A DNA stretch of 64,000 nt, from positions 721,555 to 785,554 of the forward strand of contig NC_011677.1 in the NCBI RefSeq assembly GCF_000150955.2. The letters run 5' to 3'. The notes under the pieces are model-generated. The model searched no databases, was not told the DNA's origin, and worked only from the letters and a program-made list of their open reading frames with translations. Both the position numbers and the translations under genes were made by a program. This DNA is from Phaeodactylum tricornutum CCAP 1055/1. Taxonomy: Eukaryota > Bacillariophyta > Bacillariophyceae > Surirellales > Neidiaceae. How positions within the stretch are numbered: position 1 is the stretch's first letter; each line of letters opens with the position of its first letter. Below are positions 30,989 through 58,676 of this stretch, one piece after another.

Positions 30989-32451
30989 ATGAAGTTCTCG
31001 CTTTGCATCATCGCTGCTACCGCAGCAACATGCTCCGCTTTTGCTCCGGCTACTATCAAAAGTAACGCGCTCCGCCCGAGTGTGGCAATGGACATGGCCA
31101 ATGGTGAAAAGTTTTCTAAGCGCAAGGTTGCTTTTAAGGTACGTTACCTCAGATAGTGCAGAAACTTCGAATAGCTCTTGCGTTTTTTCTCTTTGATGAC
31201 TTTGTGACTGTGTTGTAGGGAAAGCTGCGTTTGAAAGGAGCTTAGCGTTTGAAGTCGCCAATATTGAATTTACTGTTAGTCAGACTTCGCCGCCGTCTCA
31301 TTTTGCACATTTTGTTTTAGACGTTGGGAAAAGTGGCTGGCGCCCTCGGAACTTTCGCATTGGCTACCACGGGCGCTCCTCCTGCGGCGTTCGCGGCGAA
31401 GAAGGTGATTGAAGTCGTAGAAACAGCCGATAATACCAAAAAAATTGTTGGCATCGCTGGAGGTGTTCTCGCAGCCGGAGCCGTGGGAATGAAGTTTCTC
31501 GGTGGCGGTCCTGTAGAAGCCAAACAAGATTTCCTGGAAGCGGAACCCTACTGGGACCAATCCTCTGTCCCGGTGAATGTTTACAAGAACAAGGCTCCGT
31601 TTACCGGAAAGGTGGTGTCGACGAAGCGCATTGTGGGTCCTCTCGCGACCGGCGAAACGTGCCACGTTGTAATTGATCACGAAGGAAACTTTCCGTACTG
31701 GGAAGGCCAGTCCTGGGGTGTCATTCCGCCCGGTGTGCGCGAAAAGGATGGTAAACCCCACTCGGTTCGTCTCTACTCTATTGCCTCCACGCGATACGGT
31801 GACGACATGACGGGCAAGACCGGATCGCTTTGCGTTCGACGTGCAACATACTGGTGCCCGGAATTGAAAGCTGAAGACCCGACCAAGAAGGGCGTCTGCT
31901 CCAACTTTCTGTGTGACACCCGACCTGGCGAAGAAGTCCAAATGACGGGCCCTGCCGGGAAGGTGATGCTCATGCCAGAAGAGAATCCTGACACGGACTA
32001 TATTATGGTTGCCACTGGAACGGGCATTGCCCCGTACCGTGGTTTTGTCCGCCGTCTCTTCACCGAAAAGACTCCTGCCGCAGAAGCGTATAAGGGACAG
32101 GCCTGGCTATTTCTGGGTGTAGCCAACAGCGACGCCTTGTTGTACGACGACGAATGGCAAGAGGTCAAAACGAACAACCCCAATCAATTCCGCCTGGACT
32201 ATGCACTTTCTCGAGAACAGGAAAACAAAAAGGGCGGAAAAATGTACATCCAAGACAAGGTGGAAGAGTACGCGGATGAGATCTTTCAGAAATTGGATGC
32301 TGGTGCGCACATTTATTTTTGCGGCCTCAAAGGAATGATGCCCGGTATCCAGGAAATGTTGCAAACTGTCTGCACCCAAAAGGGTGTCGAATACGATGAA
32401 TGGCTTAAGGGACTCAAAGCTAAGAAGCAGTGGCATGTGGAGGTATATTAG
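30989..32451 (+). CDS. Ferredoxin-NADP+ reductase, plastid (copy 1)
   Basis: Exons 30989-31138 and 31321-32451 (GTACGT to TTTTAG) give 426 residues. The enzyme passes electrons from reduced ferredoxin to NADP+ at the stromal face of the thylakoid. The pre-sequence is bipartite ([20 protein letters not shown]). A second hydrophobic signal ending APPAAFAA (to residue 76) follows, then a helix ([18 protein letters not shown], about 92-109) before the catalytic part. FAD-binding RLYSIAST is at residues 200-207, NADP-binding GTGIAPYRG at 283-291, and the C-terminal tyrosine (WHVEVY) is intact. From 31521 on, the gene is nearly identical to copy 2 at 56756. The two N-terminal hydrophobic segments suggest membrane anchoring, which is inference. 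Confidence 0.95.
31521..32448 (+). repeat. FNR catalytic-domain block, copy 1
   Basis: This 928-bp block matches 56756-57683 with no indels (constant offset 25,235). By eye I count about 25 base differences, nearly all synonymous. Both edges are sharp: similarity starts at caaacaagatttcct and stops at the stop codon. Confidence 0.92.
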
Positions 32452-33769: not shown

Positions 33770-34930
33770 CTATCGCCTTATGCGAGGTTCCTGTTCCAGT
33801 ATATTTGGATCCCGATATAGCCTTAGTCGCGAAGTGCAGCCTTTAGAAGGACCAGTACTTATATCCTTGTTGTTCCAAAGTTCAAGCGAGCCTCGGAAGT
33901 ACTCGATCATCCAACGACTTGTCGGTAGACCGACCCCTAGACTAGATAACGGCGACCGAACCGCTGCGTAGGATTGCTGCTCGTCAAGTCGATCCCATCG
34001 CTTGACGGCAGTTGAGTGCCCAAGCATAAAAACTTCCTCAAACTCTTGTTCGATTCCAGTCCCTTCATCTACGATGTCAATAAGAATCATTTCGTCGTCC
34101 TCGCCTAGATTGATCCGAACTGGATCGACTTCGTTTTTGCTATCTCTGTTCGCTTTTGCAACACTTGCTGCCATTGCATTTTTTAGCAGTTCTACAAGGG
34201 CATGATGTATCCATGGCCGTACTATGGTCAGTCGTAGCCCGGGCTCTGGCAGCAGAGTTTCTGGAAATATCTGTAAATGCGCATCGCACATATGAGATGC
34301 TTCAGTCACGGCATCTGAAATAGCATCTGCTAACAAGCAGTTAACGCTCACGCCTCCATTCGGACTCCCCTTGTAAAGTCTAACGTAATGGTCGCAAAGA
34401 AGCTGCACACCCAGTCGTCCTTGTAGGAACTCGTCAACATGTGAATCGACTTGAGTTTCATCGCCATCTATGTTTCGGATGTCAGATACAATTTGTACCA
34501 TCGTTTCGATGCTTCGCGCGTGTCTCGATCTCAGCTGCTCGGCAGTTGAGTGCAAAAGATGTTTGTCAGACTTGGAAAATCGGTTCCATATGTTCTGGTT
34601 GCCAACGATTTCGCTCCCAAGCTTGTATGTGTCGGCGTGCACATATCGAAGACTCTCCAAATTGGAAATAGCTCGTTGACACACGAAAGCTGCTTCGGAG
34701 TTCAATATGTTATCTTGACGGGATTTGATTTCTTTGACGATCTCAAGGATGCGGACGCACGCTTCGTGCTGATGTGCTAGCCTCTTGGTGGCTTCCGAAA
34801 GTATCAATTTGGAATTCGATGCCGTGACCCCCTCAATTCCGTGGTCGGCCAGAGATCGCAGCGACCACTTCTTTATTATTTCTGTTGCATCATGCTTCAG
34901 TGACGCCTGCAGAGCCGAGGACAAGCTCAT
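33770..34930 (-). CDS. Mitochondrial PDK/BCKDK-family protein kinase
   Basis: A 386-residue intronless protein. The N-terminal four-helix part includes VDEFLQGRLGVQLLCDHYVRLY, equivalent to the FLxRxGxRxL block of pyruvate and branched-chain ketoacid dehydrogenase kinases. The GHKL ATP-binding part follows: N box ELLKNAMAAS, G1 box DEGTGIE, and G2 box LSSLGVGLPTSRWMIEYF. These kinases phosphorylate the E1 subunit of a 2-oxoacid dehydrogenase in the mitochondrial matrix and switch it off. PDK and BCKDK cannot be told apart here. The N-terminus is not strongly presequence-like. A 565-bp internal piece (34182-34746) is copied at 38313-38877. Confidence 0.85.
   Translation of the reverse strand: MSLSSALQASLKHDATEIIKKWSLRSLADHGIEGVTASNSKLILSEATKRLAHQHEACVRILEIVKEIKSRQDNILNSEAAFVCQRAISNLESLRYVHADTYKLGSEIVGNQNIWNRFSKSDKHLLHSTAEQLRSRHARSIETMVQIVSDIRNIDGDETQVDSHVDEFLQGRLGVQLLCDHYVRLYKGSPNGGVSVNCLLADAISDAVTEASHMCDAHLQIFPETLLPEPGLRLTIVRPWIHHALVELLKNAMAASVAKANRDSKNEVDPVRINLGEDDEMILIDIVDEGTGIEQEFEEVFMLGHSTAVKRWDRLDEQQSYAAVRSPLSSLGVGLPTSRWMIEYFRGSLELWNNKDISTGPSKGCTSRLRLYRDPNILEQEPRIRR
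34182..34746 (-). repeat. Source block of the kinase-fragment duplication
   Basis: 565 bp inside the kinase gene, matching 38313-38877 with no indels and five base differences by eye. The block is wholly internal to the coding sequence. Confidence 0.93.
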
Positions 34931-35485
34931 ACGAGGATTTTGAACGATGTAGAAACCTCAAGGATCTGAAGCGACTCCAGATTAGGGTGCTAAGAAATAT
35001 TCAGAGGACAACAGAGTTAATGTAAATATGGTTTCTTGCCGAAATCAAGAAATTGTCGATTCATTTACGGGTGACTGCAGGTGAACGATGTGATTGTAAA
35101 TGTAGCAGAAATCTAACAGTAACAGTAAGTCGGATTTCATTGGTCAATATACCACACAGAAAGCAGTCGAAAACAAAGTCAACTCGTATCTGACTGGAGC
35201 TCCTGAAAATATCTGAACCCTATGAGGTGGACACACTGCTGGCCTTCTTTTCACTGGGAATTACCGAGGATGCTATATCCAAAGCTACAGTTTAAAGAAA
35301 TCACAGTTAGCAGCAATAGCAAGAATGCTACAGAAATCCCTCTTCTAAGGACAATAAATATGGAAAAAACAAAGTCAGTATCAATCGGAACACATGACTA
35401 TTCCTAGCGCCAAACTATTCAAGTTTCATCAATTCTGCAAGTCAGCGTTGATTTCTCAATCAAAAAAGGTCCGTATGGGCGAGTT
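34931..35485. other. Intergenic, nothing recognised
   Basis: About 550 bp with scattered TAACAGTAA-like words near 35117; no gene. Confidence 0.35.
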
Positions 35486-37986: not shown

Positions 37987-38312
37987 GACGGGGATTTCAC
38001 GGGCTATTGTGGATGGTTTGCATGCGTCTATTTGTGTGTGTGCACTATCACACAACTTGTATAAAATTAGTGCGCATGCCTCCATAACAGACATTGCACA
38101 GCGCGATCTCACCAGAGTGGTCATAGTACGCGTGCTGCGCTTTTTATACCCAATCATAGACAAACTGAAAGTAAGCCAACAATAATGCGCCTCTTTTGTA
38201 GATCTTGTGGTATGCTTCCTGTCAAGAATAGTTGTGGATGTCCCAAGTAAAGCAGTTTGCTTGATTGTTTTGGAGGAACGAATGACAATGATGTCAATTT
38301 TAAGCTATCCAA
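37987..38312. other. Intergenic
   Basis: About 330 bp with GTGTGTG-type short repeats near 38033; no gene. Confidence 0.35.
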
Positions 38313-38877
38313 TTTAGCAGTTCTACAAGGGCATGATGTATCCATGGCCGTACTATGGTCAGTCGTAGCCCGGGCTCTGGCAGCAGAGTTTCTGGAAATA
38401 TCTGTAAATGCGCAACGCACATATGAGATGCTTCAGTCACGGCATCTGAAATAGCATCTGCTAACAAGCAGTTAACGCTCACGCCTCCATTCGGACTCCC
38501 CTTGTAAAGTCTAACGTAATGGTCGCAAAGAAGCTGCACACCCAGTCGTCCTTGTAGGAACTTGTCAACATGTGAATCGACTTGAGTTTCATCGCCATCT
38601 ATGTTTCGGATGTCAGATACAATTTGTACCATCGTTTCGATGCTTCGCGCATGTCTCGATCTCAGCTGCTCGGCAGTTGAGTGCAAAAGATGCTTGTCAG
38701 ACTTGGAAAATCGGTTCCATATGTTCTGGTTGCCAACGATTTCTCTCCCAAGCTTGTATGTGTCGGCGTGCACATATCGAAGACTCTCCAAATTGGAAAT
38801 AGCTCGTTGACACACGAAAGCTGCTTCGGAGTTCAATATGTTATCTTGACGGGATTTGATTTCTTTGACGATCTCAA
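38313..38877 (-). pseudogene. Copied internal fragment of the PDK/BCKDK-family kinase gene
   Basis: 565 bp, same orientation as the intact gene 4,131 bp to the left, five differences. It encodes the four-helix part through the start of the N box (LVELL) and lacks the N-terminus, the ATP-binding G boxes and the C-terminus. No kinase activity is possible. It stays open (about 178 codons from 38836, running on into flanking DNA), so a truncated product or an RNA is conceivable. Low divergence indicates a recent duplication. Confidence 0.9.
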
Positions 38878-39365
38878 TTTTGATTTGTTGTCTCGTGGCA
38901 AATGTACTAGAATTTTTGGAAAAGATACAAAGTTCCGTCCTTTACGGTACCTAGCTATGTAACTGTAAGGGAAATGGGAACTTTTGCGAGTTCTGGCCAT
39001 CGACAGTAAAAAGACTGGGTGACGTCGATAGCATACGACTGGCCAGATGCCGGAAGATGACCGTACGCGAGGCCAGACGCCAGGCTGGCTGTGTTTCTTC
39101 CGGCGTTTGTTCGGAACCATGAGTTAGGTTAGTCTTCGCCTTTTTTCGGTTCTTTTTCTTCCTACGAGTAACACGACCAGACAGGAGAATACCGCAAGGC
39201 TGATTCCATCCGGCGATTCGAGCCATCTGCCGCCGATCCAATTTTTGCGTGTCCAATTCCGGGCACAATCCTTGGGGGATACGACTCTCGAACATCTCCA
39301 CAAAGTCTTTGATAACACAGGATTGTGTGGACAATCACTAGACTCTATATACTTGTATCGATACA
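38878..39365. other. Intergenic, methyltransferase promoter side
   Basis: About 490 bp; contains TAACTGTAAG at 38960-38969. No credible gene. Confidence 0.35.
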
Positions 39366-40517
39366 ATGAGATGCCAACGACAAGCAACAAGCAGCACCGC
39401 AATTCGATCGACTGCCTTGGTCGTCGTGGTAGCGTCGCTAACTTACCTTCATACGAGAGCATCTGCCTACTTGCCGATATCTGTCCCCCAAAGTCACCAT
39501 CTAAACTCATTTGTTGGCCACAGGTCGGCGAAGTTCCGACCTCCTTACGCTGTTGGAAAAGATAACGAACAAACGAACGAATGGGGAATACCGTACCACA
39601 CCGACTTGCCGCCACTGGGATTCAACACAAAGCGACCACCCAAAGCCTTGCCGAATGGCGGTCGTGTCACTTTGGTGGGGTCCGGGCCCGGGGATCCCGA
39701 TTTGTTGACAGTGGCGGCCTATAAACTTTTGACGTCTGATCCGGATGCGCTCGTCGTGGCCGACAGACTCGTCAGCCCAGAAATTCTGGCTCTCATTCCT
39801 GGCGAAGTCAAGGTCGCACGCAAGTTACCGGGGTGCGCCGAACTTGCGCAAGAAGAAATATACTGGTGGTGCTATCAAGGCTTGAATCAAGGACGTCACG
39901 TGATCCGACTCAAGATCGGTGATCCCTTTGTGTTTGGACGTGGAGGTGAAGAAATATTGGCCTTTCGAGATTTTGGTGTGGAAGCGGCAGTGGTACCGGT
40001 ACGTACAAATCATGACCCCGCAACGCTCAATCTTATCCTCGCTGTTTTGTCCTCAACCTTGCGCTTTCATTCTGGACCCCAGGGTGTATCGTCAGCTTTT
40101 TCCGCTCCGCTTTTGGGAGGCATTCCGGTGACACACCGCGGAGTCGCGCAGCAGGTCGTCATGTGCACTGGCTACGGGAGGGAGGGGTCCTCCCCTGATC
40201 TCATTCAGTATCACAAGGAGCAAACAGTGGTATTCCTGATGGCGGTAGGACGGCTGCGATCACTATGTGATAAACTGATTGAATTGGCGGGGTATCCCCG
40301 GGACACACCGGTAGCGATTGTGGAAAAAGCGGGTTGCCCCGAGCAACGCACCGTTGTCGGAAACATGATGACGATTGCTGATATCGCCGAAGAGCACAAA
40401 ATCAAACCACCGAGTGTCATTGTGGTGGGAGAGGTTGTGAACGCGTTACATTTGGAAGACGAAAAGTCTGGCATGCAAGTGTCCGGTTTGCTTCAGAACT
40501 ACACGGCGTCTTCGTAG
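39366..40517 (+). CDS. Uroporphyrinogen-III C-methyltransferase, plastid (siroheme branch)
   Basis: Exons 39366-39998 and 40083-40517 give 355 residues. The 84-nt intron (GTACGT to CCCCAG) keeps frame and has no stop, so it is easily missed. Its removal joins EAAVVP to GVSSAFSAPLLGGIPVTHRG, the family sequence. The enzyme adds two methyl groups from SAM to uroporphyrinogen III to form precorrin-2. Motifs: VTLVGSGPGDPDLLTV (SAM loop), IRLKIGDPFVFGRGGEE and PVAIVEKAGCPEQRTVVGNM. The N-terminus has a hydrophobic signal with RASA|YLP at the cleavage site, consistent with the plastid. Only the methyltransferase is present, with no CysG oxidase/chelatase part. Its product is needed for siroheme in nitrite reductase 26 kb to the left. 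Confidence 0.93.
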   Translation: MRCQRQATSSTAIRSTALVVVVASLTYLHTRASAYLPISVPQSHHLNSFVGHRSAKFRPPYAVGKDNEQTNEWGIPYHTDLPPLGFNTKRPPKALPNGGRVTLVGSGPGDPDLLTVAAYKLLTSDPDALVVADRLVSPEILALIPGEVKVARKLPGCAELAQEEIYWWCYQGLNQGRHVIRLKIGDPFVFGRGGEEILAFRDFGVEAAVVPVRTNHDPATLNLILAVLSSTLRFHSGPQGVSSAFSAPLLGGIPVTHRGVAQQVVMCTGYGREGSSPDLIQYHKEQTVVFLMAVGRLRSLCDKLIELAGYPRDTPVAIVEKAGCPEQRTVVGNMMTIADIAEEHKIKPPSVIVVGEVVNALHLEDEKSGMQVSGLLQNYTASS

Positions 40518-55620: not shown

Positions 55621-57686
55621 ATGGCTAGAATCGTGAAACAGCTCTTTGGAGCGGTACTATGGCTGCTACTTTGTACTTACCAAGTAGAAGCGTTCTCTGC
55701 AGTAAGGTACGGTGAATTTGTATGGTCCAGTCTTGAACCAAACACTTTAGTGCCGAAGTCGTTCTCGTCGGTTGATTTTGTGGACGAGTATTCCAATGAT
55801 TCTGTTCCAACGATCTCATTTACAGTGACATCGTCTCACCTCTTTTGATTGGTTGTTTGGACAGTTGGAAGCATGCCAGAGTGCAACCCCGTGTCGTCGC
55901 TATGCCTACTCGGACAGTGATATCACGCTCTTCCGCACCCTCGGTACCTCAACTTGCAATGCGCGCTCCAGTGACTTTTTCGTGGCCCTCGAACAAGCAG
56001 CGACGTGTGGTTGCCAAGACGGTAAGCGCCAAGGCCTAGAATAGAGGATCACTTGTTATATATGTTTGCAGTGCGGCTGACAATTGCGATATCTTCATAC
56101 GACAGCTAGTTTCCAAGGCTGTGCTAGCCTTTTGTACGCTGGCGGTGGTCAATTTAGCGACTTCGTCGCCAGCCTTCGCCGCCAAGACCTCCGCTGTCGC
56201 GGCTGAACACTTGCATACGGGTCAAAAGGTAGCAAACTTTTTCCGCTCCTTTGGTATTCCCGATCTCGGAGTGCTCGCCATTATTTCGGCCCTCCCCGTG
56301 GTCGAACTGCGTGGCGCCGTTCCGGTGGGTATCTGGATGGGTCTCCCTATTGCCACGGTCTTGCCCATCTGTGTGCTGGGCAACATGATACCGATCGTGC
56401 CGCTCTTGTTCTTGCTACGTAACGAACGTTTGAAGAGTCTGATGAGTCCCATTTTGAATCGGGCCGCCAAGAAAACCTCCGAGTTGGGTATTGGGTCGGT
56501 CGAAAAACAGTGGGCCTCGTTGGCCGCTTTCGTTGGAATTCCCTTGCCCGGAACGGGGGCCTGGACCGGAGCTATGGGGGCCTTTTTACTGGGCATGCCG
56601 ACGCCCGTTGCCTTGAGTTCCATTTTTGCCGGCGTCGTTTCGGCTGGCGTCATTATGAGTGCAATTACCCTGGCGGGGAAAAAAGGTGGGATCGCGGCGC
56701 TGGCGGCATTGTTCCTGGCCACCGGCATCAACCTGGTTAGTGGAAAGAAGGAGATCAAACAAGATTTCCTAGAAGCGGAACCCTACTGGGACCAATCCTC
56801 TGTCCCGGTAAATGTTTACAAGAACAAGGCTCCGTTCACCGGGAAGGTGGTGTCGACGAAGCGCATTGTGGGTCCACTCGCGACCGGCGAAACGTGCCAC
56901 GTTGTAATTGATCACGAAGGAAACTTTCCGTACTGGGAAGGGCAGTCGTGGGGTGTCATTCCACCTGGTGTGCGTGAAAAGGACGGCAAACCCCACTCGG
57001 TTCGTCTCTACTCGATTGCCTCCACGCGATACGGTGACGACATGACGGGCAAGACTGGATCGCTTTGCGTTCGACGTGCAACATACTGGTGCCCGGAAAT
57101 GAAAGCTGAAGACCCGACCAAGAAGGGCGTCTGCTCCAACTTTCTGTGTGACACCCGACCTGGCGAAGAAGTCCAAATGACGGGCCCTGCCGGGAAGGTG
57201 ATGCTCATGCCAGAAGAGAACCCCGACACGGACTATATTATGGTTGCTACTGGAACGGGCATTGCCCCGTACCGTGGTTTTGTCCGCCGTCTCTTCACCG
57301 AAAAGACTCCTGCCGCAGAAGCGTATAAGGGGCAGGCCTGGCTATTTCTGGGTGTAGCCAACAGCGACGCCTTGTTGTACGACGACGAATGGCAAGAGGT
57401 CAAAACGAACAACCCCAATCAATTCCGCCTGGACTATGCACTTTCTCGAGAACAGGAAAACAAAAAGGGCGGAAAAATGTACATCCAAGACAAGGTGGAA
57501 GAGTACGCGGATGAGATCTTTCAGAAATTGGATGCTGGTGCGCACATTTATTTTTGCGGCCTCAAGGGAATGATGCCCGGTATCCAGGAAATGTTGCAAA
57601 CGGTGTGCACCCAAAAGGGTGTCGAATACGATGAATGGCTCAAGGGACTCAAAGCTAAGAAGCAGTGGCATGTGGAGGTTTACTAA
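55621..57686 (+). CDS. Fusion: Sm_multidrug_ex membrane domain + ferredoxin-NADP+ reductase (copy 2)
   Basis: Exons 55621-55706, 55865-56021 and 56106-57686 give 607 residues. Exon 1 is a signal peptide ([21 protein letters not shown]). Exon 2, in the chosen frame, is a basic, acid-free transit region. Exon 3 begins with a second hydrophobic signal ending in SSPAFAA (residue 108). Residues about 133-290 form a multi-span Sm_multidrug_ex (PF06695) domain with both hallmark segments, [15 protein letters not shown] and [16 protein letters not shown]. After [11 protein letters not shown] the complete FNR follows ([18 protein letters not shown]-terminal WHVEVY), one residue different from copy 1 by eye (Leu to Met). 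The two domains share one open exon. Likely a thylakoid- or envelope-anchored FNR. Choice of frame in exon 2 is inference. Confidence 0.88.
56756..57683 (+). repeat. FNR catalytic-domain block, copy 2
   Basis: Partner of 31521-32448; see there. The last third, roughly 57336-57565, is identical in both copies over more than 200 bp, and the flanks on both sides are unrelated. Confidence 0.92.
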
Positions 57687-58676
57687 CCGCAAGGTAGATT
57701 GTGAGAGTACTATGCTAGTCTGCCTTATCAAAGTCTAGCTTTGCTTGCTATGTTAATCTGAAAAACATAGCTATTCCTTCCTTGTTCTCACGATCTAGAG
57801 CTATCAAATTTACTTCGTTCGTGTTGGATCCTAGTAGTTCCAGTAGTTGACGGTTCTCTACGGTTAGTAGAGAGATAATCTAATGTTGAATAAATAGGAC
57901 AGCCGACGAAAGTTGTCAACGAATATGGCCTTACAGTTAGTGAGTTTACTGGTTGGTGCTGGGAGCAGGAACCGGGAAAATGACTCGGGAAGTGCACGTG
58001 TCGGTGCGGTGTGACTGACTATGACGCCTCGTAAACTACCTACTCCCGAGAGTTCTTTTTCGACCGGCGGAGACAGCGGGGTCCCCCGCACACTCGTAAA
58101 TAAACACCACCAGACTGACGGTACCCTTTGCAGACAGCATTCTATTCTTGACACACCCCCCGTTCCGAAAATAGAGACGATTGTTTGCGGTGTTGTTACA
58201 GTGTGTGCTGTAAGGAACGCATCTTCGTCAGCCAAGGTACGTAACGATATAAGAATGCCTTTCCGAGGGAATTACAGTTAGTTCACAATGCGAAGGAACC
58301 ACGAAGGGGACATTCCCTCCTTTTCCTGGGATTCGAATGGCGTTGTTATTGCTCGGAATACTCGTTCGCAAAGGCCAAGCAAAAGGCATAATGCAGGAGA
58401 AATAGTGTCAAAGTGGTGCTTGGTTGGTGTGGATGAGGACGACGGTGCGGGAAAAAATAGGCGCGATCCAGCCGGACGCACCTCTTCTGGTAATGCCGTC
58501 TCACGAAAACCTGTGCTCTGCTTGGGTGTTCTGACCAAATTTTGTTGTGCGTCTCCGGTTTGGAACAGGAAAGTCGTCGGAATCGCGCTCCGGTTGCCCT
58601 CACAACTCGACACTCCCAAGAGGTGCCCCCAGTCGGTCTCTGTGCGAGCACGACCCCCCGAGTGTATTTACGAACC
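57687..58676. promoter_or_regulatory. Intergenic, Ubl/Tudor gene promoter side
   Basis: About 990 bp. Contains TTACAGTTAG at 57931-57940 and again at 58272-58281. Rightward frames at 58021-58281 and 58288-58794 have no domain signal. Confidence 0.4.

What the first reader, a model, noticed from the sequence alone, without database searches (positions are those of the whole stretch)
55621..57686. Ferredoxin-NADP+ reductase fused to a multi-span Sm_multidrug_ex membrane domain
One continuous exon encodes a complete PF06695-type membrane domain ([10 protein letters not shown] and [11 protein letters not shown] signatures) directly followed by a complete FNR. Ahead of it lie a diatom plastid signal and a second hydrophobic signal ending in AFAA. 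FNR is normally soluble or held to thylakoids by partner proteins; a covalent polytopic anchor would fix it to one membrane and could couple NADPH supply to a transport step. Sequence shows the fusion; function is inference. I know of no described protein with this architecture.
Basis: partly seen in the sequence, partly recalled or inferred. Interest (0 to 1): 0.82.

Follow-up and report, generated by a model that had tools for sequence, protein, structure and literature searches.

The report
Membrane-anchored diatom photosynthesis enzyme (FNR)
In this diatom the enzyme that makes NADPH at the end of photosynthetic electron transport is built in one piece with a transporter-like membrane protein; the join is old and shared by many diatoms, and a second gene 25 kb away puts a nearly identical enzyme on a different membrane anchor.

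Summary
A three-exon gene (55621-55706, 55865-56021, 56106-57686; 607 aa) encodes, within exon 3, a PF06695 membrane domain joined without a stop to a full-length FNR. It is no assembly error: all 120 listed database relatives carry both domains, one spliced entry matches 546 of 547 residues, and the fusion occurs outside diatoms in Triparma. New here: (1) the window holds a second FNR gene (30989-32451) with a lumen-type signal and one hydrophobic helix in place of PF06695, a layout seen in 108 listed relatives; (2) the two FNR coding parts are 97.2% identical in DNA, 25 of 26 changed codons silent, without similarity beyond them, and near-identical fused/single-helix pairs recur among other rows, which points to repeated gene conversion; (3) in Thalassiosirales and some other rows the PF06695 protein stands alone, so it probably has a role of its own. 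Most likely a thylakoid DedA-like membrane domain holds FNR on the stromal face. Location and topology are inferred; coupling of transport to NADPH is untested. Ten searches of an open-licence library found no paper describing it.

The parts
55621..55706 (+). Exon 1 of the fused gene: start codon and hydrophobic signal ending VEAFSAV (diatom plastid-type leader; motif recalled)
   Evidence: Gene model; GT-AG splice sites read
55865..56021 (+). Exon 2: transit-peptide-like stretch with twin arginines (KQRRVVAKT)
   Evidence: agrees with spliced entry P0002 from residue 61 on
56106..57686 (+). Exon 3: second hydrophobic signal ending AFAA, PF06695 domain, extra hydrophobic segment, FNR, stop
   Evidence: acceptor fixed by P0002 after a first try at 56072 broke the frame
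56106..56183 (+). Second hydrophobic signal, lumen-type ([26 protein letters not shown])
   Evidence: Alignment A1; similar in sequence to the signal of the second FNR gene, 0 of 60 shuffled controls as high
56304..56654 (+). PF06695 (Sm_multidrug_ex) match, two predicted re-entrant helix pairs and two membrane helices
   Evidence: residues 89-205 of the frame; model
56691..56738 (+). Extra hydrophobic segment before FNR ([16 protein letters not shown]), possible third membrane helix
   Evidence: Mean Kyte-Doolittle 1.99 over 45 rows; the model joins it to the helix before it
56757..57683 (+). FNR part of the fused gene (309 aa, KQDFLEA to VEVY)
   Evidence: motifs RLYSIAS, CSNFLC, GTGIAP, CGLKGM, HVEVY present
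30989..31138 (+). Exon 1 of the second FNR gene: plastid leader (CSAFAP) and start of the lumen-type signal
   Evidence: protein equals database entry P0122
31321..32451 (+). Exon 2 of the second FNR gene: signal ending AFAA, one hydrophobic helix, FNR, stop (426 aa in all)
   Evidence: no PF06695
31521..32453 (+). Stretch 97.2% identical to 56756-57688, confined to the FNR coding part
   Evidence: blastn, 907 of 933 bases; 25 of 26 changed codons silent

Best explanation
A nuclear diatom gene makes a plastid protein in which a PF06695 (DedA-like) membrane domain and a further hydrophobic helix hold a complete FNR at a plastid membrane, most likely the stromal face of the thylakoid, where photosystem I delivers reduced ferredoxin. 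Shown by sequence: one reading frame, a conserved fusion, intact FNR motifs, invariant PF06695 motifs, a second isoform with another anchor, and homogenised FNR coding parts. Inferred: import by the bipartite leader, insertion with the N-terminus in the lumen, three membrane crossings, FNR in the stroma. The PF06695 part probably keeps a function of its own (moving an ion, small molecule or lipid), since lineages without the fused FNR keep it. The cell would then run the same enzyme from two membrane addresses: the two anchor modules stay different while gene conversion keeps the catalytic part the same.
For: Both domains in 120 of 120 listed relatives, spliced entry P0002, Triparma outside the diatoms. 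PF06695 residues E, R, G-N-P of the first half and the [10 protein letters not shown] motif unchanged in 97 plastid rows. Lumen-type signal in both anchored isoforms, alike in sequence: profile score 49.2, best of 60 shuffled controls 26.3, reversed 9.75. K/R-rich loop after TM1 (mean net charge +4.4 over 45 rows) suits the stroma by the positive-inside rule (recalled). Second isoform with the same FNR and one helix, 108 listed relatives. 97.2% DNA identity confined to FNR; FNR tree with at least 8 forced label changes; 8 of 105 fused rows have a single-helix partner at 97% or more, median of all pairs 85.9%. Stand-alone PF06695 proteins in Thalassiosirales.
Against: No localisation, protein or activity data here. 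The structure model draws TM2 and the extra segment as one 46-residue helix, which would put N- and C-terminus on the same side; with a lumenal N-terminus FNR would then lie in the lumen. Two lysines sit before the last helix in both isoforms, on the side called lumenal. The full-length model is weak (pLDDT 72.8, pTM 0.54). Only 8 of 108 single-helix rows show RR in the part examined (74 KR/RK, 26 neither). The Nitzschia inconspicua pair is not homogenised (87.7%). Species identity of most near-identical pairs is unknown.
Confidence: 0.68

Rival explanations
1. Polyprotein: the fusion is made and imported as one chain but cut in the linker, giving a free PF06695 membrane protein and a soluble FNR; the fusion serves co-regulation and equal dosage.
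For: The linker is short and variable, with long low-complexity inserts in some rows such as P0061 and P0084; the two parts do occur as separate proteins; FNR was found as a 2D-gel spot in Thalassiosira pseudonana and its activity measured, with soluble extracts named in the assay methods (PMC5299434, passages), though which isoform is not said.
Against: Single-helix isoform shows that membrane-attached FNR is used without PF06695; no cleavage motif was looked for or found.
Confidence: 0.15
2. Envelope location: the PF06695 part sits in the plastid inner envelope and carries FNR there, for example to supply NADPH to envelope enzymes.
For: An Arabidopsis PF06695-type protein, At2g02590, is listed among chloroplast solute transporters (PMC2246286, one passage).
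Against: A second signal ending AxA, typical of lumen-directed proteins (recalled), is conserved in fused, single-helix and stand-alone rows.
Confidence: 0.12
3. Redox-coupled transporter: electron or NADPH flux at the attached FNR regulates or drives transport by the PF06695 domain.
For: Strict conservation of transport-domain motifs in fused rows; homology of PF06695 to DedA proteins, proposed H+-coupled transporters (PMC7818093, passages).
Against: Stand-alone PF06695 and single-helix FNR show that covalent linkage is not required. No redox centre links the two parts.
Confidence: 0.1
4. Recent duplication or capture of the FNR part in this species instead of gene conversion.
For: The identity in the window could by itself come from one recent copying event.
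Against: Both N-terminal layouts are widespread among diatoms, and near-identical pairs recur in several separate places of the FNR tree.
Confidence: 0.12
5. Assembly or annotation artefact.
For: None found.
Against: 120 of 120 listed relatives show the fusion; spliced entry P0002.
Confidence: 0.01

Closest known systems
Plant-type ferredoxin-NADP+ reductase (solved examples 1jb9, 1fnb)
   Same: Whole catalytic part, FAD and NADP motifs, C-terminal tyrosine
   Different: Here it follows a membrane domain in the same chain; plant FNR is held by separate proteins such as TROL (PMC5683061, passage)
Cyanobacterial PetH with CpcD linker domain (NF058510, NF045929)
   Same: FNR with an N-terminal addressing module; FNR part matches from profile position 110 or 114
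   Different: CpcD part not matched; the module here is a polytopic membrane domain; score below the equivalog cut-offs (364.1 of 600; 352.6 of 635)
PF06695 / Sm_multidrug_ex proteins of bacteria and archaea (distant relatives of DedA/VTT, PMC7818093)
   Same: Whole domain, PE-LRG, GN-P and PGTGAWTG motifs
   Different: Bacterial reading frames in the 80 best loci are 154-300 aa, none fused to or near an FNR; 75 of 80 have at most 58 residues from PGTGAWTG on, against 70 before KQDF here, though a few (L027, L046) seem to have a further helix
Stand-alone plastid PF06695 proteins of Thalassiosirales
   Same: Same signal, PF06695 domain and extra hydrophobic segment
   Different: End in a short acidic tail where FNR would begin
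Single-helix FNR of diatoms (second gene in the window)
   Same: Nearly identical FNR, plastid leader, similar lumen-type signal
   Different: One helix instead of PF06695

Membership tests
Plant-type FNR | Full-length FAD and NADP domains with RxYS, GTGxxP and terminal aromatic residue (motifs recalled) | tested here: met
Plant-type FNR | Ferredoxin-dependent NADP+ reduction | not testable with these tools
   Needs an assay
PF06695 (Sm_multidrug_ex) | Score over Pfam's gathering cut-off over the whole profile | tested here: met
   105.3 bits against 30.7, profile 1-121
PF06695 (Sm_multidrug_ex) | Two re-entrant loops each packed with a membrane helix (PMC7818093) | tested here: inconclusive
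   Model shows helix-break-helix at 53-77 and 132-161, but no solved structure matched
DedA/VTT (PF09335) | Direct match to the PF09335 profile | tested here: inconclusive
   Not among matches at E <= 1; distant homology of the two families rests on PMC7818093 (passages)
CpcD-PetH | CpcD linker domain ahead of FNR | tested here: not met
   Only profile positions 110-405 matched and no CpcD Pfam domain
TROL/Tic62-type tethering | Separate membrane partner with an FNR-binding motif | not tested
   The genome was not searched for TROL or Tic62

The most novel reading that the evidence does not exclude
Diatoms keep two differently anchored membrane pools of one FNR, made catalytically identical again and again by domain-limited gene conversion, and one pool is a redox-linked carrier: electron or NADPH flux through the attached FNR sets the activity of a thylakoid DedA-like transporter or lipid scramblase. 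The dual-anchor and conversion half has good sequence support; the redox-linked carrier half is merely not excluded.
Probability: 0.12. Interest if true: 0.88.

Novelty: new variant of a known kind. Interest (0 to 1): 0.62.

Why it matters
How FNR is held at the thylakoid is thought to decide how electrons are shared between NADPH formation and cyclic flow. Plants use separate tethers and cyanobacteria a phycobilisome linker (recalled; TROL passage in PMC5683061). Diatoms, which do a large share of marine photosynthesis, seem to use covalent anchors of two kinds, one of them a transporter-like domain. Because some diatoms have the two parts separate and others fused, and because the two isoforms share almost the same enzyme, the effect of the anchor can be tested apart from catalysis.

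Tried and rejected
Assembly error or chance join: rejected.

Idea that the single helix of the second isoform is the same segment as the extra helix of the fused one: not shown. The profile comparison aligned 30 columns, mostly the shared KQDFLEA part. Only the signal peptides compare well.

Origin of the plastid PF06695 domain: not settled. Cyanobacteria were not compared.

Spread beyond diatoms and Triparma: not measured. Lists stop at 120 rows and diatoms fill them. Aureococcus is said to have a 'small multi-drug export' gene (PMC10756674, one passage); whether it is fused is unknown.

Rows dropped. One search listed 120 of 386 hits: 63 fused rows already seen and 57 new rows without an FNR label. 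Of the 57, 4 (P0253, P0264, P0268, P0269) carry the start of FNR and 3 (P0271, P0279, P0285) may be cut readings; these 7 were dropped, 2 more failed the motif filter, 48 went into the tree with 58 fused rows (named ones and every second unnamed one) and 14 of 80 bacterial rows. That tree flags long branches (P0112, P0118, Corethron, several bacteria) and roots on a very long branch, so 'fused first, FNR lost at least four times' is likely but the root is unsure; P0272 and P0283 come from genomic-size or unknown contigs and could be readings cut at an intron. The FNR tree used 104 fused and 94 single-helix rows with a full-length FNR ending VEVY or VEVF, plus the C26 and C21 genes; one search used 105 and 95 rows without the ending rule. 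One search used 104 and 107 to 114 rows that fitted the cutting motifs.

Papers. Ten searches gave no paper describing the fusion. I saw listings, and passages of seven papers (PMC7818093, PMC2246286, PMC10756674, PMC5570362, PMC11314055, PMC5299434, PMC5683061); no whole paper was read. Most subscription-journal papers, among them diatom thylakoid proteomes that I recall, are not in that library.

Full report
Observation. The window is C9:721555-785554 of a 27.45 Mb genome in 88 contigs, by size Phaeodactylum tricornutum (inferred). The frame 56040-57686 is open over 548 codons. It holds a whole PF06695 domain (105.3 bits, cut-off 30.7) and an FNR aligned with solved FNRs to their C-terminus. 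RLYSIAS, CSNFLC, GTGIAP, CGLKGM and the terminal HVEVY are present. The gene model is exon 1 55621-55706, exon 2 55865-56021, exon 3 56106-57686, 607 aa; a first try with an acceptor at 56072 broke the frame, and database entry P0002 showed the acceptor at 56106. P0002 matches residues 61-607 with one difference and crosses both the exon 2/3 junction and the domain junction.

Conservation. All 120 listed hits (of 2961 at E <= 0.001) carry PF06695 and PF00175. Names in the listing include Seminavis robusta, Chaetoceros tenuissimus, Ditylum brightwellii, Fistulifera solaris, Nitzschia inconspicua and Epithemia clementina, transcriptome entries cut to 'Leptoc', 'Dacty', 'Pseudo-' and 'Coreth', and Triparma strigata, a bolidophyte. 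In an alignment of 45 rows the PF06695 motifs and most FNR motifs are invariant or nearly so; two rows (P0115, P0119) end before the FNR C-terminus. One PF06695 match was found in the window's genome.

A second anchored FNR. The genome search gave 8 matches to the FNR part, four of them over 300 bits: the fused gene; one at window 30989-32451; one on C26 (87% protein identity); one on C21 (54%). The second gene in the window encodes 426 aa: plastid leader, signal ending AFAA, one hydrophobic helix, FNR, no PF06695, and its protein equals database entry P0122. Searching with its first 135 residues gave 109 hits; 108 lack PF06695 and nearly all show, where the region is present, a pattern like [14 protein letters not shown]...[27 protein letters not shown], then a helix, then QDFLEA. 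The one fused hit, P0016, matches over 31% of the queried region. The signals of the two isoforms are alike in sequence, not only in make-up: profile score 49.2 (96.2%), against a maximum of 26.3 in 60 locally shuffled controls and 9.75 reversed. The C26 gene goes from a leader straight to FNR with no second hydrophobic stretch (read by eye).

Gene conversion. Between the two window genes, similarity runs from the KQDF codons to just past the stop (907 of 933 bases); the only other matches in the 4.1 and 5.0 kb compared are three short ones of 24-30 bits. There are 26 differences in 930 nt: 25 codons silent and one M/L. Third positions agree at 92%, against 48% between the fused and the C26 gene. 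Yet both N-terminal layouts are widespread. In a tree of 200 FNR parts fused and single-helix rows need 39 label changes, at least 8 forced by well-supported branches. Near-identical pairs are P0036/P0228 and P0024/P0213 (100%), P0072/P0137 and P0045/P0198 (99.7%), P0017/P0153 and P0002/P0122 (99.3%), P0099/P0151 (98.7%), P0087/P0149 (97.1%); the median over 105 x 95 pairs is 85.9%, and 8 of 105 fused rows have a partner at 97% or more. Against: in Nitzschia inconspicua, named for both, identity is 87.7%; in Seminavis robusta, named for both, 95.1%. Most other pairs are unnamed for at least one side. Repeated conversion limited to the shared coding part is the simplest account; repeated capture of anchors, or collapse in assembly for some metagenome rows, is not excluded.

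PF06695 without FNR. A third search, aimed at the membrane domain with a computed consensus, listed 120 of 386 hits; 57 had PF06695 without an FNR label, of which 50 remain after dropping 7 partial or doubtful ones, most ending in a short, often acidic tail where FNR would start. Named ones are Thalassiosira exigua, Skeletonema marinoi and potamos, a 'Detonu' entry, Cyclostephanos tholiformis, Cyclotella atomus and Conticribra weissflogii; six are transcripts marked complete. Thalassiosira rotula (taxid 49265) has a single-helix FNR (P0196). In a tree rooted on bacterial rows Triparma and other fused rows come off first and stand-alone rows lie inside, with 5 changes of the stand-alone label and at least 4 forced by well-supported branches; the root and some long rows are unsure. 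So FNR has probably been lost from the fused gene more than once while the membrane domain was kept.

Fold and topology. The model of exon 3 residues 1-224 (pLDDT 79.5, pTM 0.72) shows two helix-break-helix pairs and two long helices, as described for this family in PMC7818093 (passages); the full-length model is weaker (72.8, 0.54). Searches of solved structures gave nothing significant. The loop after TM1 has mean net charge +4.4, and the segment before FNR is hydrophobic (1.99), with GKKGG between it and TM2. An N-terminus in the lumen, three crossings and FNR in the stroma fit the signal, the loop charge and the enzyme's substrates; but the model draws TM2 and the extra segment as one helix, which would not give three crossings. 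Topology is inference.

Mechanism. Most likely (0.68) the protein fixes FNR at the stromal thylakoid face through a membrane domain that also has a role of its own. Cleavage into two proteins (0.15), envelope location (0.12) and redox-transport coupling (0.10) are the rivals; they are not all exclusive of one another.

Known or new. FNRs with an N-terminal addressing domain are known (CpcD-PetH), and plant FNR is tethered by separate proteins (PMC5683061, passage). A covalent polytopic anchor, a parallel one-helix anchor and homogenised catalytic parts were not found in the ten searches named under Tried and rejected. Public databases already label such proteins as FNR with both Pfam domains, so the architecture is on record but, as far as seen here, not discussed.

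Noticed in passing
34182-34746 and 38313-38877: A 565-base stretch occurs twice with 5 differences. It lies in a 395-aa minus-strand frame (33770-34957) that by eye resembles a mitochondrial pyruvate-dehydrogenase-kinase-type protein (recalled), and in a shorter 213-aa frame (38300-38941) that looks like a partial copy.
   Followed up: partly
L005 (genome C21:214917-215831): A fourth FNR, 54% identical, sits in a 491-aa frame with some 200 residues ahead of the FNR part that match no Pfam family at E <= 0.1.
   Followed up: partly
56799-57683: The FNR part scores far higher against the 1jb9 group (442 bits) than against 1fnb and similar FNRs (296 bits and less); 1jb9 is the maize root enzyme (recalled), so the diatom FNR seems nearer to the root type.
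   Followed up: no
39342-40517: A 391-aa frame that by eye looks like a uroporphyrinogen-III methyltransferase with an N-terminal leader (recalled likeness).
   Followed up: no
L004 (genome C26:300722-301615): A third FNR with a plastid-type leader and no second hydrophobic stretch; its third codon positions agree only 46-48% with the two window genes, so it escaped the homogenisation.
   Followed up: partly
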